From assembly GCF_000328705.1 (NCBI RefSeq), contig NC_019673.1, positions 3,162,001 through 3,226,000 on the forward strand: a stretch of 64,000 nt of DNA. Direction: 5' to 3'. The DNA is from Saccharothrix espanaensis DSM 44229 (GTDB lineage: Bacteria; Actinomycetota; Actinomycetes; Mycobacteriales; Pseudonocardiaceae). The notes under the pieces were generated by a model that was not told where the DNA came from, did not search any database, and was given only the letters and a program-made list of their open reading frames with translations. Positions 33,523 to 47,645 of this stretch are shown in pieces (positions within the stretch are counted from its first letter, which is position 1; each line of letters begins with the position of its first letter). The position numbers and the translations under genes are program-made.

Positions 33523-33801
33523 GGATGTGTCACCTCGTCGTAGGTACGCGCATGAGCTTCGAACCCCGACCGCCGGTGGGCGGCGGACACCGTGGCATAC
33601 GTACCACTCCCGGTCCGCGACCTGTTCGTTACCCGTTCGTTACCAGGTTCCGCCCCCTAACTTCCGGCCGGCGTGCCTCGTTCGGGTGCGACCGCTCGGC
33701 ACAACCCGCGCGGCGGTTGGATTCGGATGCCGTTCTGTGACACTCGAATCACGCGGGGTGGAACGGGGAGGTCACGCGTGAGGCGAGGCGGGGAGAACGT
33801 G

Positions 33802-35850
33802 GTGTCCGGCACGGCCCAAGGCCCCGTGGTGCAGGCGGGCAGCGTTGGGGAGGTGCACTTCCACAGCGGCACACCCCAACCCCTCATCCCCTACCAACTC
33901 CCACCACCGCCCAGGCTGTTCACCAGCAGACACCGCGAACTCGCCGACCTCGACCACTGGCTGACCGCCGCCGAACCGCTGGTCGCCGTCGTGAGCGGAC
34001 CCGGCGGCGTCGGCAAGACGTCACTGGCGCTGCGCTGGCTGCACGGGTCCAGAACCCAGTTCCCGGACGGCCAGCTCTACGTCGACCTCGGCGCGCACGC
34101 ACCGGAGGGCCCCGCCGTCCCGGAGGAGGTCCTGGAGTGGTTCCTGCTCGCGCTCGGCGTGCCAGGTGCCGACGTCCCGCCGGGGTTGGCTCGACGACAG
34201 GCCCTGTTCCGGTCGCTCACGGCAGACCGCGCGCTGTCGTTGCTGCTGGACAACGCGGTGTCGGCCGCCCAGGTCCGGTCGCTGCTGCCCACCTCGACCC
34301 GCAGCGCGGTGTTGGCCACCAGCCGGTGGCGGCTCGGCGGGCTGGCCGTGGACGGGGCCCGGTTCGTGGAGGTGGAGTCCTTCGACGTCGACTCGTCACT
34401 GGAGCTGCTCGAACGCGCCGTCGGTCGGCGCGTCGCCTCGGAGCCCGACGCGGCCCGGGAACTCGCCCATCTGTGCGGCGGCCTCCCGATCGCGCTGTCG
34501 GTGGTGGGCGCGCGGCTGTCCACCCACCCGAGGCGCACGCTGTCCGGGGAGGTCGGCTCGCTGCGGACCGAGCGGCTGGCCAAGCTGGCGCTTGACGACG
34601 ACGTTTCCGTGGAAGCCGTGTTCGACCTGTCCTACGTGGACCTCCCCGCACGGCACGCAAGGGTCTACCGGTTGTGCGCACTGCACCCCGGCCACTCCTT
34701 CGGCGTCGAGGCGGCGGCCGCCGCAGCCGGTGAACCCCCGGGCGACGTGGCACCCGTGCTCGCAGATCTGGTGGAGAAGAACCTCTTGGCCGAGGTGGCG
34801 GACGAGCGATTCCGCTTCCACGACCTGTTGCGGCTGCACGCGCGCCAGCACGCGGACCGGGACTCCGCTGCGCAGCGCGACGCGGCGTCCCGGCGCGTGG
34901 TCGAGTGGTACCTGGACCGGCTGGTCGGCGCGGACCTGGCGCTGCGGCCCACCCGGCACCGGGTCGGTCCGCGCTACCACGGTGACGTCGTCGCGTCGTC
35001 CGGCCCGCGCGCCGCACTGAACTGGCTGGAGGGCGAACGGGCCAACCTCCGCGAGTCCTGCCGGGTCGCCGCCGAGATGGGCTGGGACGACCTGGTGTGG
35101 CAGTTCTGCGAGGCGATGTGGGGGTTCTACCTGCACGCCAGGCATTCCGACGACTGGTTCGCCCTGCACGCGCTGGGCGTCCCGGCGGCGGTGCGGCTGG
35201 GCGACCGCGTCGCGGAGGCGAAGCTGCGCGCGCAGCTCACCTACTCCTACAGCTCACTGGGGTACTTCGCCGACGCGGAACGGGAGGGCGTGCGCGCGCT
35301 GGAGATCGCGGAGGAGGACGGCGACCGGCAAGGCGTCGCGGTGGCGCTGACCGAACTCGGCGGCGTGGCCCAGGGCTCGGGCGATCTGCCGCGGGCGCTG
35401 CGGTGGCTGACCCGGGCCCGGGACGTCCGGCGCGGCATCGGACCGCGCCGCGCCGAGGCCCTGTGCGGGCGGCGGATCGGGGAGGTGCTCGCCGCACTCG
35501 GCCGGGACGACGAGGGCCTGGCCGAACTGGCCGCCGCCGCCGAGTCGATGGCGGCCGTGGGCGACCACGTCGGCCAGGCGCGGTGCCTGATGTCCACCGG
35601 CGGCCTCCACCTGCGCCGCGGACGCCCGGCGCGGGCCGTGAGCCACCTGGAGTCGGCGCTGGACGTGGTCCGCCGAGTGGGTTCGCCGTTCTACGAGGCC
35701 GAGATCCGGGCGTCGCTTGGGGAGGCCGCCGAAGGTGTCGGCGACCTCCCCACCGCCCGGCGGCACTACGCGCTGGCTCTCGCGCTGCTGCCGACCGGGA
35801 ACCCGAAGGCCGCCACGATCAGCGCCCGGCTGGCCGCGCTGGACCGCTGA
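33802..35850 (+). CDS. STAND NTPase with NB-ARC and TPR repeats
   Basis: 682 residues; GTG 33802 chosen for GGGGAG 6 bases upstream (GTG 33778 also possible). A short N-terminal motif (GPVVQAGSVGEVHFHSG) is found before the NTPase in many actinobacterial STAND proteins. The P-loop GPGGVGKTS is at residues 66-74, sensor blocks are ALSLLLDNAVSAAQVRSLLP and ATSRWRLGGLAVDGAR, and the GxP motif is LCGGLPIALSVVGARL. From about residue 430 the protein is TPR-like helical repeats (ADAEREGVRALEIAEEDGDR, GDLPRALRWLTRARDVRR). No DNA-binding, TIR or other effector domain is visible. It could be a signalling switch or a defence protein. Confidence 0.82.
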   Translation: MSGTAQGPVVQAGSVGEVHFHSGTPQPLIPYQLPPPPRLFTSRHRELADLDHWLTAAEPLVAVVSGPGGVGKTSLALRWLHGSRTQFPDGQLYVDLGAHAPEGPAVPEEVLEWFLLALGVPGADVPPGLARRQALFRSLTADRALSLLLDNAVSAAQVRSLLPTSTRSAVLATSRWRLGGLAVDGARFVEVESFDVDSSLELLERAVGRRVASEPDAARELAHLCGGLPIALSVVGARLSTHPRRTLSGEVGSLRTERLAKLALDDDVSVEAVFDLSYVDLPARHARVYRLCALHPGHSFGVEAAAAAAGEPPGDVAPVLADLVEKNLLAEVADERFRFHDLLRLHARQHADRDSAAQRDAASRRVVEWYLDRLVGADLALRPTRHRVGPRYHGDVVASSGPRAALNWLEGERANLRESCRVAAEMGWDDLVWQFCEAMWGFYLHARHSDDWFALHALGVPAAVRLGDRVAEAKLRAQLTYSYSSLGYFADAEREGVRALEIAEEDGDRQGVAVALTELGGVAQGSGDLPRALRWLTRARDVRRGIGPRRAEALCGRRIGEVLAALGRDDEGLAELAAAAESMAAVGDHVGQARCLMSTGGLHLRRGRPARAVSHLESALDVVRRVGSPFYEAEIRASLGEAAEGVGDLPTARRHYALALALLPTGNPKAATISARLAALDR

Positions 35851-36008
35851 CCACACTCGACCAGCACGTCGGCCAGCGCGAGCCGGGCGGGCGCGGCCCG
35901 ACCCACCTCGCCGATCACGACCTGGTCGACCCGGCCGTCACCGGTGGCGACGACCAGTCGGTGCAGCCCCGCACCCAGGCCGTCCACCACCAGACACACC
36001 CTCACACC
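35766..36008 (-). CDS. Possible 80-residue protein after the GT-B gene
   Basis: GTG 36008 lies two bases into the end of the preceding gene (GTG-TGA-GGG context). The first 50 residues look coding (CLVVDGLGAGLHRLVVATGD, VDQVVIGEVGRAAP). The last 28 codons run antisense through the STAND gene's 3' end. It may be a truncated gene rather than a functional one. No family recognised. Confidence 0.3.
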   Translation of the reverse strand, partial: GVRVCLVVDGLGAGLHRLVVATGDGRVDQVVIGEVGRAAPARLALADVLVECGQRSSAASRALIVAAFGFPVGSSARASA

Positions 36009-37210
36009 CGCTCCGGGCGCAGGGGCAGCGGCACCGGCACCGGCACCCGCTCGGTGACCGCCGGGACGTCCGGCTCCGGCAGGTCCATCAGGCGGTACAT
36101 CACCGCGCGCAGGGCGGACGCCGCCTGCCCCGGCCGCGACGACACCAACCCGGCGATGGCCGCGGCGTCCCCGCGCGCGACGAGCTGCGGCGCGACCGGC
36201 CGGTCGGGGTCGAGTTCGGCGAACCGGCCGCGCACGGCGTCGGCGAGGCTGCCCCGGCGGACGTTGCCCTCCGGGAACGACGCCAAGGTGACCGGCGTGC
36301 CGACCGCCGCGGCGTACTGGGTGGTGGACCCGTGGTCGCCCAGCACGTGGTCGCTGGCCACCGCGGCCGCCCGCCACCCCTCCTCCGGCGGGATCACCAG
36401 CAGCCCGGCTTCGATGCAGTCGTGCAGCCAGGCCCGGATCTGCCAGCGCCCGTGGACGCTCCACGCGTTCGGGTGCAGCACCAGCGCGACCCGGTCGTCG
36501 GGCAGCTCGTCGAGCAGCGACCGGCACAGCGCGAACCGCCGCCCGAAGGTCGAGTCCGGCGCCCAGGTGGAGCTCACCGTGATGAGCCGCCGGCCGGCCG
36601 GCACGCCCAGCGCCGCCCGGTACCGGTCCCGGGCCGGCAGGCTCGCGACCATCCGGTCCAGGCAGAGGTCGCCCACCACTACGGCGGTGTGCGCAGCCTC
36701 GGGGCACGACGACCGCAGCCCGGCCAGCTCGTCGTCGTGGGTGAGCCCGATCGCGGCTGGCAGCACCCGCCCGCGCCGAGTCAGCGACTCGCGGCTGAGC
36801 CCGGCGTGCGGCATGCCATGCGGACCTGTGTGCCTGCTGAACTTCCGCGACGCGAGGTGCCCGGCCCCGTGCGGCAGCAGCAGCACCGGCCCGCGCGCCT
36901 GGTCGATGTCGTTGTACCCGGCTGCCAGCACCAGGTCGAACTCGTGGTTCACTGCCTGCTGCCACGGCACGACCACGGCCTCCTGCCGCCGGACGAGGTC
37001 TTGCGTGCCCTGCCACCACTGCCCGGTGTCGGTCACCGAGAACACCACCTGTATGCGGGGATCGTTGCGCAGCAGCGGAACCACGTCCGCGATCAACCGG
37101 ATCCCGGCCGCCGGGTGCGGCACCATGACCAGCACGGTCCGGCGGACCGGGACGGTGACCCGCCGGTCGGCGTCCGGCCCGATCGGTCCCCGGATCCAGT
37201 GCCCGCTCAC
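36002..37210 (-). CDS. GT-B-fold transferase, CDP-glycerol glycerophosphotransferase-like
   Basis: 402 residues; GTG 37210 overlaps the dehydrogenase stop. The order of motifs fits the GT-B fold: TVLVMVPHPAAGIRLIADVV, FDLVLAAGYNDI, VLLLPHGAGHLASRKFSRHT, AVVVGDLCLDRM, LITVSSTWAPDSTFG, VALVLHPNAWSVHG and VLGDHGSTTQYAAAVGTPV. The H-G-AGH and GDHGSTTQYAAAVGTP blocks resemble teichoic-acid and UDP-sugar transferases/epimerases. Such actinobacterial proteins are often labelled only hypothetical. Coupled to the nucleotide-sugar dehydrogenase, so it probably uses or transfers its product onto an envelope glycan. Specific reaction unknown. Confidence 0.6.
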   Translation of the reverse strand: MSGHWIRGPIGPDADRRVTVPVRRTVLVMVPHPAAGIRLIADVVPLLRNDPRIQVVFSVTDTGQWWQGTQDLVRRQEAVVVPWQQAVNHEFDLVLAAGYNDIDQARGPVLLLPHGAGHLASRKFSRHTGPHGMPHAGLSRESLTRRGRVLPAAIGLTHDDELAGLRSSCPEAAHTAVVVGDLCLDRMVASLPARDRYRAALGVPAGRRLITVSSTWAPDSTFGRRFALCRSLLDELPDDRVALVLHPNAWSVHGRWQIRAWLHDCIEAGLLVIPPEEGWRAAAVASDHVLGDHGSTTQYAAAVGTPVTLASFPEGNVRRGSLADAVRGRFAELDPDRPVAPQLVARGDAAAIAGLVSSRPGQAASALRAVMYRLMDLPEPDVPAVTERVPVPVPLPLRPERV

Positions 37211-38478: not shown

Positions 38479-38836
38479 CGAACCCTCCCGTGTGCCGCCC
38501 ACGCCCGAGCCCCTCCCGGCGGTGCGGCTGGTCCGAGTCTCGGGGCGGTTCCTGTCGGATCCCGGTCAGTGAGCGGCCGGCGGGCCGAACCCGGTGCTCA
38601 CCGGCGGCGTGGAGATCAGGTTTTCCGGCGGTGCCCGCCGAACCCGACCGGCGGTTCGGCGAGCCGGATTTCACGCACCTTTCAGGGGCCTTTCGAGTGG
38701 TTACCGGCGCGTACTGGTCCGACCGGGCCACCGGTTGTCACAGCGAGGTCTCGGAACGTGACAAACGCGTGTAACGAACGCCGGTTCCGGGGCACACTCT
38801 GACCCGAATCATCGCGTCCGGTGAGGGGTGGCGCTG
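38479..38836. other. Divergent promoter region, no gene
   Basis: About 360 bp between the dehydrogenase gene and the SARP-STAND gene. GC content falls and codon bias disappears toward the right half. GAGGGG at 38823-38828 is the ribosome-binding site of the right-hand gene. I cannot place promoters with confidence and see no clear repeat. Confidence 0.5.
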
Positions 38837-41812
38837 GTGAACACTTATTTCAAGATCCTCGGGCAGACCCGTGTCCTGGTGAACGGAGCTTTCACCGATG
38901 AATGGGGCACGCTGAAAGAGCGCGGCGTGTTCGCCGTGCTCTTGCTGCACATCGGCAGAGCGGTTCCGGCCCGCATTTTGGCGGAATGGGTGTGGCCGGT
39001 CGACAAGTCGCCCCAGGATATCGCGGCGACGTTGTCCACTTATTCGACCCGAATACGCAACGCCCTGAAGCGGCTCGGGCTGCCGGGGCAACTGCGCACG
39101 GAGGACGGCGGATACCGATTCGTCGCCGATCCGGAGACCGTCGACTACCACGCCTTCCAACGCGCCGTGCGCGACGCCCGCCGGCACGGCAAAGCGGGTG
39201 ACCACGAGCACGCCTGCGAGATCATGGAGGCCGCGCTCGGGCTCTGGGAGGATCGGCCGCTGGCCGACCTGGACACCGACCGCGCCGACAACTGGCGGCG
39301 GGTCGCGATCCGCGACGAGTGGCTCTCCGCCACCGACGGCCTGCTCTACGGCCTGTACAAGCGGGCCGAGTTCGAGGAGATGCTGCGGGTGGCCAAGTCC
39401 GCCCAGTTCGAGCACGACGGGGACGTGCTGCTGGCCAAGCGCCGCCTGCAGGCGCTGTACTCGCTGGGCCGCGGCGAGGAGGGCGTGCAGTACTTCTTCG
39501 ACTTCTACCGCCGCGCCAAGGACGAGGACCGGCCCGAGCAGGCCGACGAGCTCCGGCGCTTCCACGACCGCCTGGTCGCCGACGACGCGCGTCCGGCGGC
39601 GGGGTCGGCGGCAGCGGCGCCCGACGGCGTGCTGTCGCCCCGGCACCTGCCCTACGACGTCGACGGGTTCGCCGGGCGCCACGACCTGCTGGCCAGGATG
39701 GACGACCTGGTTCCCGCCCCACCCCGGCCCCGGCTGGTCGCGCTGGACGGCCCGCCCGGCGTGGGCAAGACCGCCCTGGCGGTGCACTGGGCGCACCGCG
39801 TGGCCGACCGGTTCCCGCACGGCGTGTGGTTCGTCAACCTCAACGGCTTCGGCGAGGGCGTGCCGGTGGCCGACGAGGAGGTGGTCACCCGCCTGCTGGA
39901 GTCGCTGAGCGTGTCGGCGGACTGCCTGCCCACGGCCGACGCGCGCCGTCGCAAGCTGGTCGACGTGCTGTCCACCCGGCGGCTGCTGGTGATCCTCGAC
40001 AACGCTGTCGACGGCCGGCACGTGGGCGGACTGCTGCCGCTGTTGTCCGGCTGCGTCGTGGTGGTCACCAGCCGGGTCCGGCTCAGCGACCTGAGCCTGA
40101 GGCACGGGGCGCGCTGCTTCACCGTCACCCCGCTGGAACCGGAGCTGGCCACCGGGTGGCTGTGCGACCGGCTGGGGGCCCGCGCGGACGTCGAGCCTGG
40201 TGCCGTGGACGACCTGGCCTCGCTCGCGTGCGGTCTGCCGCTGGCGCTCGGCATCATCGGCGAGTACGTCGCGGCGCAGCCCGGCAAATCGCTCGGCGAG
40301 TTCGTGACCCGGCTGCGCGAGCGCGGTGCCGTGCTGCGGTTGGGTTCCGACAGCACCCACGCGATCCGCTCGGTCCGCGCGGCCATCGACTGCTCTTACC
40401 TGGCGCTGAGGCCGGGCGTGCGGCGCCTGTTCCGGCTGCTCGGCAGCTACCCGGGCCTGGTGATCCAGCACGGCGTCGCCGCGTCGCTGGCCGGCCTGCC
40501 CGAGTCGGAGGTGCACGACCAGCTGGAGGCCCTGGTGTGGGCCCGGCTGCTGGAGGCCCGGGAGGGGGACCGGTACGCCTTCCACGACCTGCTGCGCAAC
40601 TACGCGGCCGAGCGCGTGGAGGAGGACGAGGAGTTCGAGGAGCGCGAGTGGGCGGCCCGCCGCATGATCGACTGGTTCCTGCACAGCTGCAACAACGCCG
40701 ACCGGCTCATCTTCGCCTCGAAGCTCAGCGTGCCGATGTTCGAGCCGTCGGCCGGCGTGACGCCGTTGACCTTCCCGGACGCCGAGACCGCCATGGACTG
40801 GTACGCCCGCGAGCGCGGGGAACTGGTGGCCCTGGTCGACTTCGCGGTGGAGAACAGCTTCGACGAGCACCTGTGGCGGCTGATCAACTGCATCGGCGAG
40901 GTCATGATGCGGCTCGGGTTCAAGGACGAGGTCCTGCGCAGCATGGGCGTCGCCGTGCGGGCGACGCGGTCGGTCGGCGACCGGTTCGCCGAGGGGGGGT
41001 CGCTGTGCAACCTCGGGCTCGCCCACTCGCGGTTCTACGACTACGACGAGGCGGAGCGGTGCTACCGCGCGGCGCACGGGATCTTCCTGGAGATCGACCA
41101 CCGGATGGGGCTTGCGACCGTCCTGCGCAACATGGGGGAGCGGCGCGGTGCCATCGGCGACACCGCCGGCGCGCTGGAGCACCTGGAGCAGGCCCTGGCC
41201 CTCGCCCGGCGCGAGGGCGACCCGCACCTGGAAGCGAGCGTGCTCCAGCGGATCGGCGAAGCTCTGCGGATCGGTGGCCGGGTGGACGAGGCGATCACGC
41301 AGTTGCGGCTGGGTTGGATGCTGTGGGAGCGCCTGGGCGACGCCGGTGACATCGGGGTCTCGTTGTCCTCGCTCGCCGCGGCCCACTACGAGCAGGGCGA
41401 CCACTTCGGGGCGCTCAGCTTCGCCCACCGCGCCATCGTGATGCTGGGCCAGGCCCGGGACTTCGCCTTGGAGGGGCAGACCTGCACCACGCTCGCGACC
41501 GTCCACCGTGACCTCGGCGATCTGGAGAAGGCCGAGTTCTACGCGGCGCGGGCCGTGCTGCTGACCCGGCAGGCGCAGGACCCGAAGCGGCAGGCGGGCG
41601 CACAGGACCTGCTCGGCCAGGTGCGGTGGCGCCAGGGCCGGCACCGCGAGGCGCGGGAGTGCTGGGGCCTCGCGCTCGGCCTTTACTCCGGACTCGGTGA
41701 TTCCAGAGCCGATGGAATTCGGGCGCAGTTGGCGGAATGGGCCGAGCCGGACGTACCACGCCGACGTGCCTCTGGTGAGGGGTCATCCATCTGGGGAGTT
41801 GAGAAACTCTGA
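38837..41812 (+). CDS. AfsR-type SARP regulator: HTH-BTAD-NB-ARC-TPR
   Basis: 991 residues; GTG 38837 chosen for GAGGGG 8 bases upstream. Domains in order: OmpR-like DNA-binding domain (about 1-95, ending LRTEDGGYRFVADPE), BTAD (about 98-250, YHAFQRAVRDARRHGKAGDH), NB-ARC ATPase with P-loop GPPGVGKTA at 305-313, LLVILDNAVDGRHVGGLLPL, TSRVRLSDLSL and CGLPLALGIIGEYVAA, then eight or so TPR units (LCNLGLAHSRFYDYDEAERC, GDTAGALEHLEQALALARRE, GDLEKAEFYAARAVLLTRQA). AfsR-class proteins activate genes when the ATPase is switched on. Local targets are unknown; the small exported peptide gene directly downstream is the prime candidate. Confidence 0.9.
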   Translation: MNTYFKILGQTRVLVNGAFTDEWGTLKERGVFAVLLLHIGRAVPARILAEWVWPVDKSPQDIAATLSTYSTRIRNALKRLGLPGQLRTEDGGYRFVADPETVDYHAFQRAVRDARRHGKAGDHEHACEIMEAALGLWEDRPLADLDTDRADNWRRVAIRDEWLSATDGLLYGLYKRAEFEEMLRVAKSAQFEHDGDVLLAKRRLQALYSLGRGEEGVQYFFDFYRRAKDEDRPEQADELRRFHDRLVADDARPAAGSAAAAPDGVLSPRHLPYDVDGFAGRHDLLARMDDLVPAPPRPRLVALDGPPGVGKTALAVHWAHRVADRFPHGVWFVNLNGFGEGVPVADEEVVTRLLESLSVSADCLPTADARRRKLVDVLSTRRLLVILDNAVDGRHVGGLLPLLSGCVVVVTSRVRLSDLSLRHGARCFTVTPLEPELATGWLCDRLGARADVEPGAVDDLASLACGLPLALGIIGEYVAAQPGKSLGEFVTRLRERGAVLRLGSDSTHAIRSVRAAIDCSYLALRPGVRRLFRLLGSYPGLVIQHGVAASLAGLPESEVHDQLEALVWARLLEAREGDRYAFHDLLRNYAAERVEEDEEFEEREWAARRMIDWFLHSCNNADRLIFASKLSVPMFEPSAGVTPLTFPDAETAMDWYARERGELVALVDFAVENSFDEHLWRLINCIGEVMMRLGFKDEVLRSMGVAVRATRSVGDRFAEGGSLCNLGLAHSRFYDYDEAERCYRAAHGIFLEIDHRMGLATVLRNMGERRGAIGDTAGALEHLEQALALARREGDPHLEASVLQRIGEALRIGGRVDEAITQLRLGWMLWERLGDAGDIGVSLSSLAAAHYEQGDHFGALSFAHRAIVMLGQARDFALEGQTCTTLATVHRDLGDLEKAEFYAARAVLLTRQAQDPKRQAGAQDLLGQVRWRQGRHREARECWGLALGLYSGLGDSRADGIRAQLAEWAEPDVPRRRASGEGSSIWGVEKL

Positions 41813-41862
41813 CCACTGCTTTTGCGCAGATCGTGGCCACCTTGCACTCAAGTGGGGAGAAA

Positions 41863-41880
41863 GACTACCCAAAAGTAGTC
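41863..41880. promoter_or_regulatory. Inverted repeat upstream of the small exported peptide
   Basis: GACTAC, six bases, GTAGTC: perfect 6-bp arms, 67 bp before the peptide ATG in a locally AT-richer stretch. It could be an operator in the peptide promoter or a weak hairpin after the regulator gene. Confidence 0.4.
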
Positions 41881-41946
41881 AATCTGGCTCACGTCTGGTC
41901 GAGACCCGTGTGACGGGCCGCCGACCAGGTTTGAGAGTATCCTCGC

Positions 41947-42156
41947 ATGATCAAAGCGAAACACCTCCCCGCCGTGGTCGCCCGTGCAGCCGCAGGTACG
42001 GCCTTCATCGCGGCTTCCGTCGGAATTGCGCCGGTCGCGGTGGCCGCGCCCGCTGGGACGGCCACCGCGACCGTCGAACCGACCGCGACGACGATGACCC
42101 TCGCGGAGGGCACCGTGCGCGGCGATTCGATGTTGTGGGGAATTCCCAACCGCTGA
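41947..42156 (+). CDS. Small exported peptide precursor (69 residues)
   Basis: ATG 41947. Basic start (IKAKHLPAVVAR), hydrophobic core (AAAGTAFIAASVGIAPVAVA) and a likely AxA cleavage site near residue 34 leave a mature peptide of about 35 residues, rich in Thr/Ala and ending RGDSMLWGIPNR. There are no cysteines and no recognisable lanthipeptide or lasso features. The 3' end uses unusually AT-rich codons (GAT TCG ATG TTG TGG GGA ATT). It has its own upstream gap and a terminator after it, and follows the TPR-containing SARP regulator by 134 bp. It could be a signal peptide hormone or simply a small secreted protein; no homologue is recognised. Confidence 0.65.
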   Translation: MIKAKHLPAVVARAAAGTAFIAASVGIAPVAVAAPAGTATATVEPTATTMTLAEGTVRGDSMLWGIPNR

Positions 42157-42206
42157 TCTTCCGGCTATCAGTCGAAAGATAAGTGATCCCTCCCCACTTC
42201 CGCACT

Positions 42207-42238
42207 GTGCCCGGTTCGGCGGCTACCGAGCCGGGCAC
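42207..42238 (+). terminator. Terminator after the exported peptide gene
   Basis: GTGCCCGGTTCGG (42207-42219) pairs with CCGAGCCGGGCAC (42226-42238): 13 pairs including one G-U, six-base loop, 50 bp after the stop. Confidence 0.75.
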
Positions 42239-42580
42239 ATTCATGTGCGGACCAAGCATGGCGGTGCCCGCGGAGTTCCGCAGGGCGGCGCGCGAAGAGT
42301 CACTCTACCGTGTCCGACTATTCTCCGGTGGGGCCCGGGTAAATTGACGGAATAGCTGGAAATGGTCAATTACGGCCGTGTCCCGATTGGTGCGAATTCC
42401 GCGATTGTGCGGCGTCGGCGGCCCGGTCGGCGGTGGACCGGAAACGGTGGCCGGCACAGGACCAGTTCCGGCATTGGTCTCGTGCGGGCGCGATCGGCCG
42501 TCTCTGTTGGCCGCCGAGCCTTCCCGGTGGGGGTGCGGGCGCGGAAGACTCGCGGAACGGACAACCCGAAGGAGTTGGTC
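42239..42580. promoter_or_regulatory. Long untranslated region before the propeller gene, with an inverted repeat
   Basis: About 340 bp without a supported gene. AATTGAC (42342-42348) and GTCAATT (42365-42371) form perfect 7-bp arms with a 16-base spacer in the most AT-rich stretch of the neighbourhood, plausibly an operator or promoter element. AAGGAG precedes the downstream ATG. Confidence 0.4.
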
Positions 42581-43498
42581 ATGGCTCGCATGTCCGGTGT
42601 GCTGGCTGCTGTCGTGGTCGGGCTCTCGCTCGTCACCGCCGCGCCCGCCACCGCCGAGAGGGCGCACCCGTTCCCCACCGAGTTCGCGCTGCCCGACGGC
42701 TTCCGGCCCGAGGGGATCGCCATCGGCGACGCGCCCACCGCCTACCTCGGGTCCCTCGCCGACGGGGACCTGTTCCGGGTGGACCTGCGCAGCGGCAAGG
42801 GGGAGGTGTTCAGCCAGGGGCCCGGGACGCCGTCGGTCGGGTTGAAGGTCGATCGGCGGGGGCGGCTGTTCGTGGCCGGCGGCGCGGGTGGGGACGCCCG
42901 GGTCGTGGACGCCCGGAGTGGAGCGATCCTCAAGTCCTACAAATTCGCCGAGTCCGGTGCTTTCGTCAACGACGTGGTGATCACCGATGACGCCGCCTAC
43001 TTCACCGACTCCAGCCGGGCGGTGCTCTACAAGATCGCCTTCGGTCGGCACGGGAAGCTGCCCGAGACGTTCACCGCGGTGCCGTTGACCGGTGATTTCG
43101 TGCTCACCCCCGGCTTCAACGGCAACGGGATCGCCGAGACGCCCGACCGGAAGGCCCTGCTCGTGGTGCAGAGCAGCACCGGCCAACTGCACCGCGTGGT
43201 CGACGGGGTCAGCAAGATCGTCGACCTCGGCGGCGAGGTGCTGACCGCCGGTGACGGGTTGCTGGTGCGCGGACGCACCTTGCACGTGGTGCAGAACCGG
43301 CTCAACACGGTCTCCGTGTTCACCCTCGACAGGGCCGGTACCAGCGGAAAGCTGGTGACCAAGATCACCGACCCGCGATTCGACGTGCCGACCACGGTCG
43401 CCGCGTTCGGCAATCGGCTGTACCTGCCCAACGCCCGGTTCACCACACCGCCGACCCCGACGACCGCTTATAACGTCATCGGCACGCCCAACAGGTGA
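42581..43498 (+). CDS. Secreted NHL/SMP-30-like beta-propeller
   Basis: 305 residues, ATG 42581 behind AAGGAG. Signal peptide (SGVLAAVVVGLSLVTAAPATA, cleavage after ATA). Six repeated blades can be followed: LPDGFRPEGIAIGDAPTAYL, GDLFRVDLRSGKGEVFSQGP, KVDRRGRLFVAGGAGGDARV, FVNDVVITDDAAYFTDSSRA, GFNGNGIAETPDRKALLVVQ and LLVRGRTLHVVQNRLNTVSV. These proteins are often mislabelled superoxide dismutase in actinomycetes. A hydrolase or lactonase role like SMP-30 is possible; metal ligands are not certain. A hairpin follows at 43504. Confidence 0.78.
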   Translation: MARMSGVLAAVVVGLSLVTAAPATAERAHPFPTEFALPDGFRPEGIAIGDAPTAYLGSLADGDLFRVDLRSGKGEVFSQGPGTPSVGLKVDRRGRLFVAGGAGGDARVVDARSGAILKSYKFAESGAFVNDVVITDDAAYFTDSSRAVLYKIAFGRHGKLPETFTAVPLTGDFVLTPGFNGNGIAETPDRKALLVVQSSTGQLHRVVDGVSKIVDLGGEVLTAGDGLLVRGRTLHVVQNRLNTVSVFTLDRAGTSGKLVTKITDPRFDVPTTVAAFGNRLYLPNARFTTPPTPTTAYNVIGTPNR

Positions 43499-43714: not shown

Positions 43715-46219
43715 GTGAAGCAGAAGAACAAGGCGGAGACCAACCAGAAGACGATCCGCTCCCGGCTCACCGGCGTGGTGGTGGTGCCGAGCGTGGTTCT
43801 GCTGGTGATGTGGTTGGCGTTCTCGTCTTACACCGTGTTCGACGGCTTCTACACCCGCGCCGTTGCGGTCAGCGTCAAGGACGCCTCCATCCCGGCGGTC
43901 AACGCGTTCGTCGCCATCCAGCGGGAACGCCAGCTCGCGATGACGGCGCTGAGCCAGAAGAACCCGGACCTGGGCGCCCTGCACGAGCAGCAGCGGGTCG
44001 TGGACGACACGACCGGCACCATGAAGGCCGCGTTCGACGCCGTCTCGGGCAACGCCCCGGACGAGGTGACCGTCAAGATCACCGACCTCAACGCGCTGCT
44101 CGGCGAGCTGCCGCAGCGCCGGGCCGGCATCGAGTCCGGCAAGACCGACAAGAACTCGGTCTACAAGTACTACAACAGCGTGGTGGACGCGGGCACCGCG
44201 CTGTTCGGCACGCAGGCCCGGGTGGTCCCGGACGCGGTCGCCTCCCAGGGCGGCCTCAACGCGACCGACCTGTTCCGCGCCGCCGACTGGATGTCTCGGG
44301 CCTCCTCCATCGCCTCCGGCGCGCTCACCTCGGGCCGGCCCAGCCCCGACGACCTGCTGGAGTTCGTGCACCTGGTCGGCTCCTACCGGTCCCAGCTCGT
44401 CACCACCACGCCGTTCGCCGCCGAGCGGGTCCGCCGCGACTACCGGGCGCTGACCGAGTCCGACACCTGGCGCCGGCTCTCCACGCTGGAGAACGAGCTG
44501 ATCGCCACCCCCAGCGCCACCGTCGCGCTGGAGGAGTGGCAGTCCGCCGCCGGCCCGGTCTCCGAGCGGCTCGTCGACCTCGCGACCGGCCAGGCATCCA
44601 ACGCCGCCGACATCGGGCTGGAACGCGGCAACAACCGGTTCGTCACCGTGCTGATCGGCGCGCTCATCGCGCTGGTCGTGGTGCTCGGCGGCATCGTGTT
44701 CGCGGTCCGCATCTCCAACCGGCTGGTCAACCGCGCGCTGATCACCCGCCTCGCCGCGCTGAAGAAGGACTCGCTGAACCTGGCGCACGAGCGGCTGCCC
44801 GACATCGTCGACCGGCTGCGCGAGGGCAAGCACGTCGACGTCGAGGTCGAGGTGCCGCCGCTGGACTACGGCAGCGACGAGATCGGCCAGGTGGCCGACG
44901 CGTTCAACGCCGCCCAGTACACCGCCGTCGCCGCCGCGGTGAAGGAGAGCCAGGCGCGCGAGGGCGTGAACCGGGTCTTCCTCGACATCGCGCACCGCAA
45001 CCAGGGCCTGGTGCACCGCCAGCTCAAGATCCTGGACAAGCTGGAGCGCGAGGAGGAGAACCCGGAGCAGCTCGACGCGCTGTTCCAGCTCGACCACCTC
45101 GCCACCCGGGCCCGGCGCAACGCGGAGAACCTGATCATCCTCGCCGGCGAGCAGCCGGGCCGGCAGTGGCGCAAGCCGGTGCGGCTGCTGGACGTGCTGC
45201 GCGCCGCCGTCGCCGAGACCGAGCAGTACGTGCGGGTCAAGGTGAACCCGGTGCCGGAGACCGCGCTGGTGGGCGCGGCCGTCGCGGACACCATCCACCT
45301 GGTGGCCGAGCTGGTGGACAACGCGACCGCGTTCTCCTCGCCGCGCTCCCAGGTCCAGGTGCACGCCAGCGAGGTGCCCCAGGGCATCGTGGTGGAGATC
45401 GAGGACCACGGCCTGGGCATCAACCCCGAGGACCGCGAGCAGCACAACGCGATGCTCGCCGATCCGCCCGAGTTCGACGCCATGCGGCTGCGCGGCGAGT
45501 CCCGGCTGGGCCTGTTCGTGGTCGCCCGGCTCGCGGCCCGCCGCGGCATCCACGTCGAGCTGCGCGACTCGCCGTACGGCGGCACGCTCGCGCTGGTGCT
45601 CATCCCGTCGGCGATCGTGGCGGGGCCCAACTCCGCCGTGGAGCCGGCCGAGACCCGCGAGCTGCCCCGCCGCACCTTCCCAGACGACCACGTGATCCCG
45701 GAGCAGGGCGACGACTCAGTGCGAGACGCCAGGTTTCCCGACACTTCCCGAGAGCTGGAAGGCTTCTGGGCACAGGCCGAGGCCGCGGCCAACCAGCATT
45801 CCCTTCCAGCGGACGACCGACTGAAGGACCGGCTGGACGACCGGCCCGCCGACCGGGTCGGCGACCGGCCCGCCGACCGGTCGGGCAACCTGCTGACCGA
45901 GCGGCCGGAGCCCAGACCGGACGACGACCACGACCTGCCCCAGCACAGCGGCGACCTCCAGCTGCCGCAGCGCAAGCGGACCACCGACTGGCCGGCCGAC
46001 GAGCCGGCCGCCGGGGCCGCCGACCGGCCGGAGCTGCCCCGCCGCCGCAGGCAGCAGAACCTCGCGCCGCAGTTGGTGCGCAACGATTTCCACCCCACGC
46101 CCGAACCGCTCGCCGAGGTCGACGTCGAGCAGTCCGCCGAACGGGTCCGGGAGGGCCTGTCGGCGTTCCAGCGGGGCACGAAGGACGCCCGCCGCTCCGA
46201 CGACGCCCTAGAACCCTGA
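43715..46219 (+). CDS. cvnA: Conservon sensor kinase-like protein with nitrate-sensing (NIT) domain
   Basis: 834 residues, GTG 43715. First membrane helix at about 19-42 (VVVVPSVVLLVMWLAF), an extracellular NIT domain (about 45-305, FVAIQRERQLAMTALSQ), second helix at about 311-334 (VLIGALIALVVVLGGIVFAV), HAMP, a dimerisation segment (RVFLDIAHRNQGLVHRQLKI) and an ATPase domain (LVAELVDNATAFSSP, EDHGLGI, RLGLFVVARLAARRGI). The disordered tail of 220 residues contains a charged repeat (DRPADRVG, DRPADRSG). CvnA acts with the Roadblock, DUF742 and GTPase proteins that follow, a membrane switch resembling eukaryotic G-protein modules. Confidence 0.9.
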   Translation: MKQKNKAETNQKTIRSRLTGVVVVPSVVLLVMWLAFSSYTVFDGFYTRAVAVSVKDASIPAVNAFVAIQRERQLAMTALSQKNPDLGALHEQQRVVDDTTGTMKAAFDAVSGNAPDEVTVKITDLNALLGELPQRRAGIESGKTDKNSVYKYYNSVVDAGTALFGTQARVVPDAVASQGGLNATDLFRAADWMSRASSIASGALTSGRPSPDDLLEFVHLVGSYRSQLVTTTPFAAERVRRDYRALTESDTWRRLSTLENELIATPSATVALEEWQSAAGPVSERLVDLATGQASNAADIGLERGNNRFVTVLIGALIALVVVLGGIVFAVRISNRLVNRALITRLAALKKDSLNLAHERLPDIVDRLREGKHVDVEVEVPPLDYGSDEIGQVADAFNAAQYTAVAAAVKESQAREGVNRVFLDIAHRNQGLVHRQLKILDKLEREEENPEQLDALFQLDHLATRARRNAENLIILAGEQPGRQWRKPVRLLDVLRAAVAETEQYVRVKVNPVPETALVGAAVADTIHLVAELVDNATAFSSPRSQVQVHASEVPQGIVVEIEDHGLGINPEDREQHNAMLADPPEFDAMRLRGESRLGLFVVARLAARRGIHVELRDSPYGGTLALVLIPSAIVAGPNSAVEPAETRELPRRTFPDDHVIPEQGDDSVRDARFPDTSRELEGFWAQAEAAANQHSLPADDRLKDRLDDRPADRVGDRPADRSGNLLTERPEPRPDDDHDLPQHSGDLQLPQRKRTTDWPADEPAAGAADRPELPRRRRQQNLAPQLVRNDFHPTPEPLAEVDVEQSAERVREGLSAFQRGTKDARRSDDALEP
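45839..45886 (+). repeat. 24-bp tandem repeat in the cvnA tail
   Basis: Two units, 45839-45862 and 45863-45886, encode DRPADRVG and DRPADRSG, preceded by the related DRLKDRLD. The tail is hydrophilic and probably unstructured. Confidence 0.8.
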
Positions 46220-46265
46220 CCAGAGCAGCAGTGCCGGACGACTGGAAACCGGAAAGGCAACGGCG

Positions 46266-46700
46266 ATGAACGACATGACCAGCCAGCACAACGAACTCAA
46301 CTGGTTGTTGGAGGACCTGGTCGGCCGTGTGGTGGGTGCTCGGCACGCGGTGGTGCTGTCCGCGGACGGTCTGCTGCTGGGCCGCTCACCCGGACTGTCC
46401 AAGGACGACTCCGACCACCTCTCGGCCATGGCGTCGGCGTTCCAGAGCCTGGCCCGCGGCACCGGGCGGCACTTCGGCGGCGGGGCGGTGCGCCAGACCA
46501 TCGTGGAGATGGAGCACGCCTACCTCTTCGTCACCGCGGCGGGGCACGGCGCGTGCCTGGCCGTCCTGGGCGAAGAGGACTCCGACATGGGGATGATCGC
46601 CTACGAGATGAACATGCTCGTCAAGCGGGTCGGCAGCTACCTGTCCTCGGCACCGCGCGGGACGTCGGCCGCCTTGCCCACGGCGCGCAGGTCGTCCTGA
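46266..46700 (+). CDS. cvnB: Roadblock/LC7 domain protein
   Basis: 144 residues, ATG 46266. Begins SQHNELNWLLEDLVGRVVGA, then HAVVLSADGLLLGRSPGL, QTIVEMEHAYLFVTAAGHGA and CLAVLGEEDSDMGMIAYEMN, the standard Roadblock fold of conservon B proteins. It is thought to regulate the partner GTPase. The stop overlaps the cvnC start (TGATG). Confidence 0.92.
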   Translation: MNDMTSQHNELNWLLEDLVGRVVGARHAVVLSADGLLLGRSPGLSKDDSDHLSAMASAFQSLARGTGRHFGGGAVRQTIVEMEHAYLFVTAAGHGACLAVLGEEDSDMGMIAYEMNMLVKRVGSYLSSAPRGTSAALPTARRSS

Positions 46701-47071
46701 TGAAGGGCCGCGAGGACTGGTGGTACGACGAGGCGGCGGGCCCGCTGGTCCGCCCGTACGCGATGGTGCGCGGCCGGACCCGTCCGCTGCGCCCGGAGCT
46801 GCACCTGGTGACCCAGGTGCGCGCGATGCCGTCGCCGGCCGACCCGGACGCGCTGTCGGTCGAGCACCTGGAGATCATGGAGCTGTGCCGGCGGCCGCTG
46901 TCGGTGGCGGAGGTCGCGGCGTACCTGGACGTGCCGCTCGTGGTCGTCAAGGTGCTGTTGAGCGACCTCATCCAGCGCGGTGACGTCGTGATCCGAGACC
47001 CGTCCCGGGTCCCGCAAGTGCCGGACCGGAACCTGTTGCAGGCTGTGCTGGATGGTGTCCGTGGAATCTGA
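46700..47071 (+). CDS. cvnC: DUF742 protein
   Basis: 123 residues, ATG 46700 overlapping the cvnB stop. Contains the DUF742 sequence WWYDEAAGPLVRPYAMVRGR, then a winged-helix-like part (HLEIMELCRRPLSVAEVAAY, DVPLVVVKVLLSDLIQRGDV). Conservon C proteins have no known catalytic role and may bind nucleic acid or bridge partners. Overlaps cvnD by 20 bp. Confidence 0.92.
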   Translation: MKGREDWWYDEAAGPLVRPYAMVRGRTRPLRPELHLVTQVRAMPSPADPDALSVEHLEIMELCRRPLSVAEVAAYLDVPLVVVKVLLSDLIQRGDVVIRDPSRVPQVPDRNLLQAVLDGVRGI

Positions 47072-47645
47072 GCGACCGGGTGGGGAACTGCTGGTCCCCA
47101 CCCCAGTCAAGATCGTCATCGCCGGCGGCTTCGGCACCGGCAAGACGACGATGGTCAACTCGGTCAGCGAGATCCCGCCGCTGCACACCGAGGAGTTGCT
47201 GACCGAGGCGGGCGTCGGCGTGGACGACGTGCTGGGCCTGGAGCAGAAGGAGACCACCACGGTCGCCCTCGACTTCGGGCGCATCACGATCAACCCCGAG
47301 GTGGTGCTGTACCTGTTCGGCACCCCGGGGCAGAACCGCTTCTGGTTCATGTGGGACGAGCTGGCCTACGGCGCGATCGGCGCGGTGATCCTGGTCGACA
47401 CCCGCCGGCTGGACTCCAGCTTCCCGTCGATCGACTTCTTCGAGCGCCGGGGCATCCCGTTCGTGATAGCGGTCAACTGCTTCGAGGGCGCGCACGCCTA
47501 CGAGGTGGCCGAGGTGCGCCGCGCGCTGGACGTGGACGAGGCGATCCCGCTCGTGCTGTGCGACGCGCGGGACCGCGAGTCGTCCAAGACGGTCCTGGTG
47601 AGCCTGATCCAGCACACCATGGACCGCCTCGACGCGATGGCCTGA
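47052..47645 (+). CDS. cvnD: Conservon GTPase (Ras-like)
   Basis: 197 residues, ATG 47052. GTPase motifs: P-loop GGFGTGKTT, switch region VALDFGRITINPEVVLYLFG, G3 TPGQNRFWFMWDELAYG, VLVDTRRLDSSFPSIDFFER and G4-like AVNCFEGAHAYEV. G4 reads VNCF in place of NKxD, as in other conservon GTPases. Works with CvnA-C at the membrane. In Streptomyces conservons a P450 often follows; here the next gene is a convergent flavin monooxygenase. Confidence 0.92.
   Translation: MVSVESERPGGELLVPTPVKIVIAGGFGTGKTTMVNSVSEIPPLHTEELLTEAGVGVDDVLGLEQKETTTVALDFGRITINPEVVLYLFGTPGQNRFWFMWDELAYGAIGAVILVDTRRLDSSFPSIDFFERRGIPFVIAVNCFEGAHAYEVAEVRRALDVDEAIPLVLCDARDRESSKTVLVSLIQHTMDRLDAMA

What the first reader, a model, noticed from the sequence alone, without database searches (positions are those of the whole stretch)
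38837..42238. TPR-containing SARP regulator followed by a small exported peptide: possible peptide signalling pair
The sequence shows a 991-residue HTH-BTAD-NB-ARC-TPR regulator and, 134 bp behind it on the same strand, a 69-residue precursor with a signal peptide, a cysteine-free mature part ending RGDSMLWGIPNR, its own upstream inverted repeat (GACTAC-6-GTAGTC) and its own terminator. In Firmicutes, RRNPP systems pair a TPR regulator with an adjacent exported propeptide that returns to the cell and binds the TPR. AfsR-type proteins have the same TPR element plus an ATPase switch. Peptide control of an AfsR-like protein through a neighbouring precursor is, as far as I know, not an established mechanism. 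The functional link is inference.
Basis: partly seen in the sequence, partly recalled or inferred. Interest (0 to 1): 0.72.

Follow-up and report, generated by a model that had tools for sequence, protein, structure and literature searches.

The report
Regulator paired with exported tryptophan peptide
A large ATPase-switch gene regulator of a soil actinomycete is followed, also in its closest relatives that we found, by a tiny gene for a probably exported peptide with the same short tryptophan- or phenylalanine-containing core, which looks like a peptide signalling pair that we have not found described.

Summary
In detail: a 991-aa SARP/BTAD-NB-ARC-TPR regulator (38837-41812 +) is followed 134 bp on by a 69-aa ORF with an export-type N-terminus (41947-42156 +). 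A peptide profile searched over 390 Pseudonocardiaceae genomes gives 13 strong matches, each directly behind one of the 13 regulators of one clade; no other match is better than E 2e-5 (12 of the 13 were in the profile; 15 candidates scored per genome). The conserved part is a five-residue core S-M-x-[W/F]-G; the window's terminal IPNR and the inverted repeat are not conserved. More widely, 63 of 113 related regulators have a short hydrophobic-headed ORF behind them with one of six Trp-motif classes (7 changes on the regulator tree, shuffled minimum 33); antisense gives 0 of 113, but the motifs were written from these data. A nucleotide-sugar dehydrogenase or an unclassified 402-aa protein lies divergently upstream in 45 of 53 loci. 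Best reading: the processed peptide is the TPR ligand that switches the STAND activator, working like RRNPP without its receptor architecture. Export, maturation, uptake and binding are inferred. Ten searches of the open library found no description. Structure prediction did not finish.

The parts
38837..41812 (+). large SARP regulator, 991 aa: SARP/BTAD (about 1-250), NB-ARC (298-499), TPR (about 720-950)
   Evidence: profile of 12 relatives matches solved AfsR 8k60/8jke best
41947..42156 (+). probable exported peptide precursor, 69 aa; hydrophobic signal-like segment about residues 14-33 (hydropathy, by eye); conserved core S61-M62-L63-W64-G65, tail IPNR peculiar to this copy
42127..42141 (+). 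codons of the conserved core SMLWG
   Evidence: MAFFT alignment of 12 peptides: S61, M62 and G65 nearly invariant
42200..42250 (+). GC-rich hairpin behind the peptide, possible terminator (no T-run)
   Evidence: dG -38, z -6.6; same stem pattern in 3 of 13 class A loci; terminator scan negative
38737..38762 (+). 26-bp conserved element in the divergent promoter, candidate operator
   Evidence: 18-26 of 26 bases match the consensus in 6 of 6 Saccharothrix-genus and Umezawaea loci; its 20-bp core has one other match, at two mismatches, in the genome
37207..38502 (-). nucleotide-sugar dehydrogenase (UGD), divergent, candidate target
   Evidence: TIGR03026 317 bits over cut-off 189.8; within 1.5 kb upstream in 19 of 53 loci
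36002..37210 (-). G2, 402-aa protein of no recognised family, overlapping the end of UGD by four bases; candidate target or modifier
   Evidence: no Pfam or NCBIfam match; within 1.5 kb upstream of the regulator in 26 of 53 loci, those without UGD there
33673..35850 (+). second NB-ARC-TPR protein without a SARP domain, conserved in this locus in three named relatives

Best explanation
A cognate signal-receptor pair. The precursor is exported through its N-terminal hydrophobic segment and trimmed; the C-terminal S-M-x-W-G piece returns to the cytoplasm (or is met at the membrane) and binds the C-terminal TPR superhelix of the regulator. Binding releases the STAND (NB-ARC) switch so that the SARP domain activates the divergent UGD-G2 operon, and possibly its own gene. 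Shown here: the gene pair, its co-occurrence, the conserved core, clade-specific cores in related pairs, the conserved divergent genes, and a conserved promoter element next to them. Inferred: export, maturation, uptake, binding, the ATPase switch and the target genes. That the pair is real and functionally linked I put at about 0.95; the ligand mechanism at 0.58.
For: The 13 regulators of the clade all carry the peptide, and the 13 peptide matches below E 1e-9 in 390 genomes all lie behind one of them (12 of 13 were in the profile). Core conserved while the precursors are 16-37% identical to the window's. Leave-one-out profiles find 9 of 12 left-out peptides at E 1.3e-5 or better, L034 at 0.001, L067 only at 0.17, L065 not at all. 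Pooled pN 0.24 against pS 0.41 over 20 overlapping pairs of related precursors. 63 of 113 regulators have one of six Trp-core classes; class follows the regulator tree, 7 changes against a minimum of 33 in 200 shuffles; class D is also one side of a branch, 15 of 15. [quoted passage not shown] kinesin light chains with tryptophan-acidic and other short peptides (PMC5450233 and PMC6214655, abstract starts in listing). STAND proteins are presumed to be released by an inducer, and it 'remains elusive' whether one binds AfsR's sensor domain (PMC10936776, passages). One SARP, NosP, is reported to respond to peptidyl ligands of a precursor peptide (PMC10972967, passage and a reference title). The genome has 20 matches to oligopeptide-binding proteins.
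Against: No binding, expression or peptidomic data. The promoter element is not found upstream of the peptide gene in 11 loci scanned, so feedback on the peptide is unsupported. Signal peptides were judged by hydropathy and eye only. Fifty of 113 related regulators got no class label; with relaxed criteria a few of them (L039, L080, L092, perhaps L081 and L145) show a Trp-peptide, but clades such as L083/L088/L093/L099/L100 show nothing; distant paralogues in this genome have none, 0 of 5. Positions that separate class A from class D regulators are not enriched in the TPR part: 2 of 391, against 9 of 350 in the NB-ARC part and 2 of 254 in the SARP part. Class C is not clearly clustered on the tree (46 of 500 shuffles as low). 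Two of the 20 codon comparisons have pN above pS.
Confidence: 0.58

Rival explanations
1. The peptide is an output, not an input: a secreted effector (antimicrobial, surface or developmental peptide) whose gene is switched on by the regulator beside it, as AfsR switches on afsS.
For: AfsR activates afsS in Streptomyces (PMC10936776, passages). The peptide gene stands 134 bp apart with a hairpin behind it.
Against: AfsS is not exported (recalled). The candidate operator is not upstream of the peptide. The conserved part is only five residues in a fast-evolving precursor, as expected for a ligand rather than a folded effector, and its class follows the regulator tree.
Confidence: 0.2
2. The peptide is a precursor of a modified peptide (RiPP): G2, with nucleotide sugar from UGD, modifies the Trp core, and the regulator is the cluster activator. 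A modified pheromone would join this with the best explanation.
For: G2 or UGD lies upstream of the regulator in 45 of 53 loci; a Streptomyces relative of G2 matches glycerophosphotransferases weakly, E 0.008, under the cut-off. The regulator resembles HaaT, a RiPP-associated TPR protein, far below its cut-off.
Against: The precursors have export-type hydrophobic heads; UGD is absent within 1.5 kb in 34 of 53 loci; G2 belongs to no recognised family, so nothing shows that it acts on peptides. A search of the whole neighbourhood for RiPP enzymes was not made.
Confidence: 0.12
3. The small protein is not exported but stays as a membrane-anchored partner that tethers or inhibits the regulator from inside.
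For: Several relatives are only 28-50 aa with one hydrophobic segment and a short tail (classes E and F).
Against: In class A the segment is followed by A-x-A-like sites and a longer tail, as in cleaved export substrates (judged by eye); the core lies at the C-terminus.
Confidence: 0.08
4. The ORF is a chance reading frame.
For: Short, no recognised family, no clear ribosome-binding site in the window copy (by eye).
Confidence: 0.02

Closest known systems
RRNPP/RRNPPA peptide receptors, especially Rgg/ComR with SHP/XIP
   Same: TPR regulator with an adjacent small precursor whose C-terminus is the conserved part (RRNPPA rule: PMC9765709, passages); Trp core like the WW motif of type II XIP
   Different: the regulator is a SARP-NB-ARC-TPR STAND protein of about 1000 aa, outside the 250-500 aa receptor range of RRNPP_detector (PMC10075063, passages); actinobacterial; uptake and binding untested
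Streptomyces AfsR/AfsS
   Same: same domain architecture; NF053617 match 309 bits, PDB 8k60 E 8e-105 with a profile; AfsR acts on the small gene afsS
   Different: far below the AfsR equivalog cut-off of 1430 bits; AfsS is not exported and has no Trp core (recalled)
NosP, a SARP of nosiheptide biosynthesis
   Same: SARP reported to respond to peptidyl ligands from a precursor peptide (PMC10972967, passage and reference title)
   Different: the ligand comes from the antibiotic's precursor peptide, not from a dedicated small gene behind the regulator (inference; the paper itself was not seen)
HaaT and FxSxx-COOH system TPR proteins
   Same: TPR proteins named for ribosomal peptide systems; partial matches of 258 and 87 bits
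   Different: below cut-offs 1125 and 300; no such precursor recognised here
MalT/GutR-type STAND activators
   Same: STAND activators switched by inducer and ATP (PMC10936776, passages)
   Different: their inducers are maltotriose and glucitol; SARP domain here

Membership tests
large SARP (AfsR-like) regulators | BTAD, NB-ARC and TPR in one chain of about 1000 aa | tested here: met
   profile match over nearly the whole AfsR chain
AfsR proper | NF053617 equivalog score over 1430 bits | tested here: not met
   309 bits
RRNPP | adjacent small propeptide gene | tested here: met
   13 of 13 regulators in the clade
RRNPP | mature part at the C-terminus of the propeptide | tested here: inconclusive
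   the conserved core SMx[WF]G is C-terminal, but 4 of the 12 aligned copies have 4-7 residues behind it and no mature peptide has been seen
RRNPP | propeptide with an export signal | tested here: inconclusive
   hydropathy and visual reading only; no signal peptide predictor at hand
RRNPP | receptor of 250-500 aa (size range of RRNPP_detector, PMC10075063, passages) | tested here: not met
   991 aa with NB-ARC and SARP
RRNPP | uptake by oligopeptide permease | tested here: inconclusive
   20 SBP_bac_5 matches in the genome, none shown to act on this peptide
RRNPP | peptide binds the TPR domain and changes regulation | not testable with these tools
   needs binding and transcription assays
AfsR-AfsS type pair | operator of the regulator upstream of the small gene | tested here: inconclusive
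   the candidate operator is absent there, but that this element is the regulator's operator is itself inferred; an unrecognised site is possible
HaaT / FxSxx TPR protein | curated NCBIfam cut-off | tested here: not met
   258 of 1125 and 87 of 300 bits

The most novel reading that the evidence does not exclude
A large undescribed family of peptide signalling systems in actinomycetes: each AfsR-like STAND activator of these clades has its own exported Trp-core peptide, encoded directly behind it, as the inducer of its TPR sensor, with diversified cores (SMxWG, YWN/S, S[KR]HW, WPxxI, terminal WW, WVxIY) giving private channels. This would be an NLR-like ATPase switch used for peptide quorum sensing and would name a missing ligand class of large SARPs.
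Probability: 0.5. Interest if true: 0.92.

Novelty: new variant of a known kind. Interest (0 to 1): 0.8.

Why it matters
Whether an inducer binds the sensor domain of AfsR is stated as open (PMC10936776, passages), and communication signals in Actinobacteria are described as typically enzyme-made small molecules (PMC10075063, passages). If these peptides are the ligands, short synthetic peptides could switch on genes that stand under large SARPs, and peptide quorum sensing would have a second, independent form built on a STAND ATPase. The pairs are short, named by sequence and directly testable.

Tried and rejected
Inverted repeat as conserved regulatory site: found behind 1 of 113 regulators, this one. 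SARP-type heptamer repeats at 11-bp pitch upstream of the peptide: none in 10 of 11 loci. Divergent-promoter element as a shared operator of the peptide: no convincing match in 11 loci. Sigma-70-type promoter and T-run terminator scans near the peptide: none. Naming G2 by sequence: failed. Positions that separate class A from class D regulators: 13 found, only 2 in the TPR part, so no help. Class-wide search, three candidates scored per genome: at E 1e-90, 4 of 246 genomes match, the own one included; none of L148-L152 (L152 repeats paralogue L128) shows a short Trp-peptide, though L149 is followed by a 138-aa exported-looking protein; Kitasatospora locus L064 listed none.

Counting notes: the 113 loci are L031-L060 and L065-L147, chosen as good matches to this regulator, so not a random sample, and some are near-copies (for example L054 and L136). 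L061-L063 were left out because they are the same contigs as L032, L035 and L065 (equal contig lengths), L064 as a distant one. L041, L077, L140 and L142 have broken regulator frames and were left out of the tree (109 rows); none of them bears a class label. The six class motifs were written after looking at the sequences, and the Trp criterion too, so both controls are partly circular; 52 loci meet both, 7 the criterion only (L045, L048, L070, L077, L079, L120, L127; some look spurious) and 11 the class motif only. Regulator searches scored at most 14 or 2 candidates per genome and the peptide search 15, so members can have been missed. The codon comparison used the first start codon, so a few pairs include stretches that may not be coding. 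Literature: ten searches of the open PMC library only.
Full report
What is there. The window holds a 991-aa regulator at 38837-41812 (+) with BTAD, NB-ARC and TPR domains over the Pfam cut-offs. A 69-aa ORF at 41947-42156 (+) follows 134 bp later. The window lies in a 9.36-Mb single-contig genome. Named relatives that carry the regulator are Saccharothrix sp. NRRL B-16314 and S. deserti, then Umezawaea endophytica. The regulator is AfsR-like along its length (PDB 8k60, E 8e-105 with a profile of 12 relatives) but scores 309 bits against the AfsR equivalog cut-off of 1430.

Regulators with 56-68% identity were found in four further genomes of the genus and one of another genus (identities). The five have a short export-type ORF starting 42-234 bp behind the regulator's stop, ending SMLWG, SMRWG, TMRWG, SMWWD and SSWRWG. 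A next tier at 39-43% identity in another genus ends SMKFG, SMQFG and SMKFG, or carries SMRWG or SMKWG followed by seven more residues. One regulator in that identity range, L070 (39%), has no recognisable peptide of the kind and falls outside the clade on the tree. In an alignment of 12 precursors S61, M62 and G65 of the window peptide are nearly invariant, while the precursors are only 16-37% identical to it. The window's last four residues, IPNR, have no counterpart.

Independence from the regulator. The window peptide alone, used as query over 60 genomes, had its best non-self match (E 8.7e-4) directly behind the G008 regulator; the G015 and G012 partners (E 0.018 and 0.14) were hit among chance matches and the G016 partner was not listed. 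A profile of the 12 peptides run over 390 genomes of the family gave 13 hits between E 6.7e-25 and 1.9e-10, each directly behind one of the 13 regulators of the clade; the next hit was E 2e-5, inside a 602-aa frame. Twelve of the 13 were in the profile; the thirteenth (G268, E 2.5e-12) was not. Leave-one-out profiles recovered 9 of 12 at E 1.3e-5 or better, one at 0.001, one at 0.17 and one not at all; the left-out row had still shaped the alignment.

A wider pattern. Among 113 related loci, 59 have a sense ORF of 25-120 aa starting within 400 bp behind the regulator with a basic residue before a hydrophobic segment and a Trp near its end; the antisense strand of the same regions gives 2 of 113 and shuffles 1.2%. 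Of 47 long, GC3-rich ORFs used as control only this regulator scored. By C-terminal motif 63 of 113 fall in six classes: A S-M-x-[WF]-G (13), B YW[SN] (8), C S[KR]HW-like (6), D WPxxI-like (15), E terminal WW (16), F WVxIY-like (5). The antisense strand gives 0 of 113 and shuffles 1 of 1130, but the motifs were written from these data. On the regulator tree of 109 rows (FastTree) the 63 labels need 7 changes; 200 shuffles needed at least 33. Classes A (13 rows) and D (15 rows) are each one side of a branch with local support 100 and the peptide in every row. Classes B, C, E and F are less tidy, and class C is not clearly clustered (46 of 500 shuffles as low). Twenty precursor pairs pooled give pN 0.24 and pS 0.41; the pairs overlap, and in two of the 20 pN exceeds pS.

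Neighbours. In 53 loci with 1.5 kb upstream DNA, a divergent relative of the nucleotide-sugar dehydrogenase is found there in 19 and a divergent relative of the window's 402-aa G2 in 26, so 45 of 53. In the window the order is G2, dehydrogenase, divergent promoter, regulator, peptide. The promoter holds a 26-bp element, GTCACAkCGAGGTmTCGGAAcGTGAC, matched at 18-26 of 26 bases in six of six close loci; its first 20 bases have only one other match in the genome, at two mismatches, and the reversed-pattern control also gives one match. The element is not seen in the six loci of the 40%-identity tier, and there is no convincing match upstream of the 11 peptide genes scanned. I take it as the probable operator of the dehydrogenase-G2 operon. 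A second NB-ARC-TPR protein without SARP (33673-35850) is conserved in the three named loci. G2 has no recognised family.

Mechanism. AfsR-type proteins are STAND proteins, presumed to be held inactive until an inducer meets the sensor; whether one binds AfsR's sensor domain 'remains elusive' (PMC10936776, passages). A co-inherited, probably exported peptide with a short clade-specific aromatic core is what one would expect of that inducer. ComR of streptococci, with its pheromone site in a TPR domain, responds to Trp-containing XIP peptides encoded directly downstream of it (PMC5131902, passages), and kinesin light chains recognise tryptophan-acidic and other short peptides (PMC5450233 and PMC6214655, abstract starts only), so TPR folds can read such cores. 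I therefore propose export, trimming, return, binding to the TPR, release of the NB-ARC switch and activation of the divergent operon. Only the genomic part is shown.

Comparison. It works like RRNPP in arrangement but fails the receptor size and architecture test, so I do not file it there. It is a member of the large SARPs. It differs from AfsR-AfsS in that the small protein looks exported (AfsS recalled). NosP shows that a SARP can answer to a peptide (PMC10972967, passage and reference title). The RRNPP_detector study covered Firmicutes and viruses (PMC10075063, passages). My ten searches of the open library listed no paper whose title or abstract start describes an exported peptide beside a large SARP; subscription papers and most preprints are not covered.

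Noticed in passing
window 33673-35850 +: Second NB-ARC-TPR protein (725 aa) without a SARP domain, convergent to G2, 73%, 73% and 53% identical in L061, L062 and L063.
   Followed up: partly
window 36002-37210 -: G2, a 402-aa protein of no Pfam or NCBIfam family, upstream of large SARPs across the family; a Streptomyces plasmid relative weakly matches glycerophosphotransferases and stands beside an ATP-binding protein with a sub-cut-off TPR match.
   Followed up: partly
window 38737-38762: 26-bp element conserved in the divergent promoter of six loci; its core is nearly unique in the genome.
   Followed up: yes
G000:C1:244260-248489: An oligopeptide-binding protein gene lies next to a distant large-SARP paralogue in the same genome.
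   Followed up: no
window 43715-47645 +: NIT-domain, kinase-like protein followed by small proteins conserved at 96-97% in S. deserti; looks like a conservon (name recalled).
   Followed up: no
loci L103, L106, L126, L147: 28-50 aa ORFs ending DWWRTY, TWWKYY or DWWRC behind large SARPs, strikingly like streptococcal WW-motif pheromone precursors.
   Followed up: partly
window 42581-43498 +: Exported-looking protein with a weak SMP-30-like match behind the peptide, conserved behind several related regulators, also with class B peptides.
   Followed up: no
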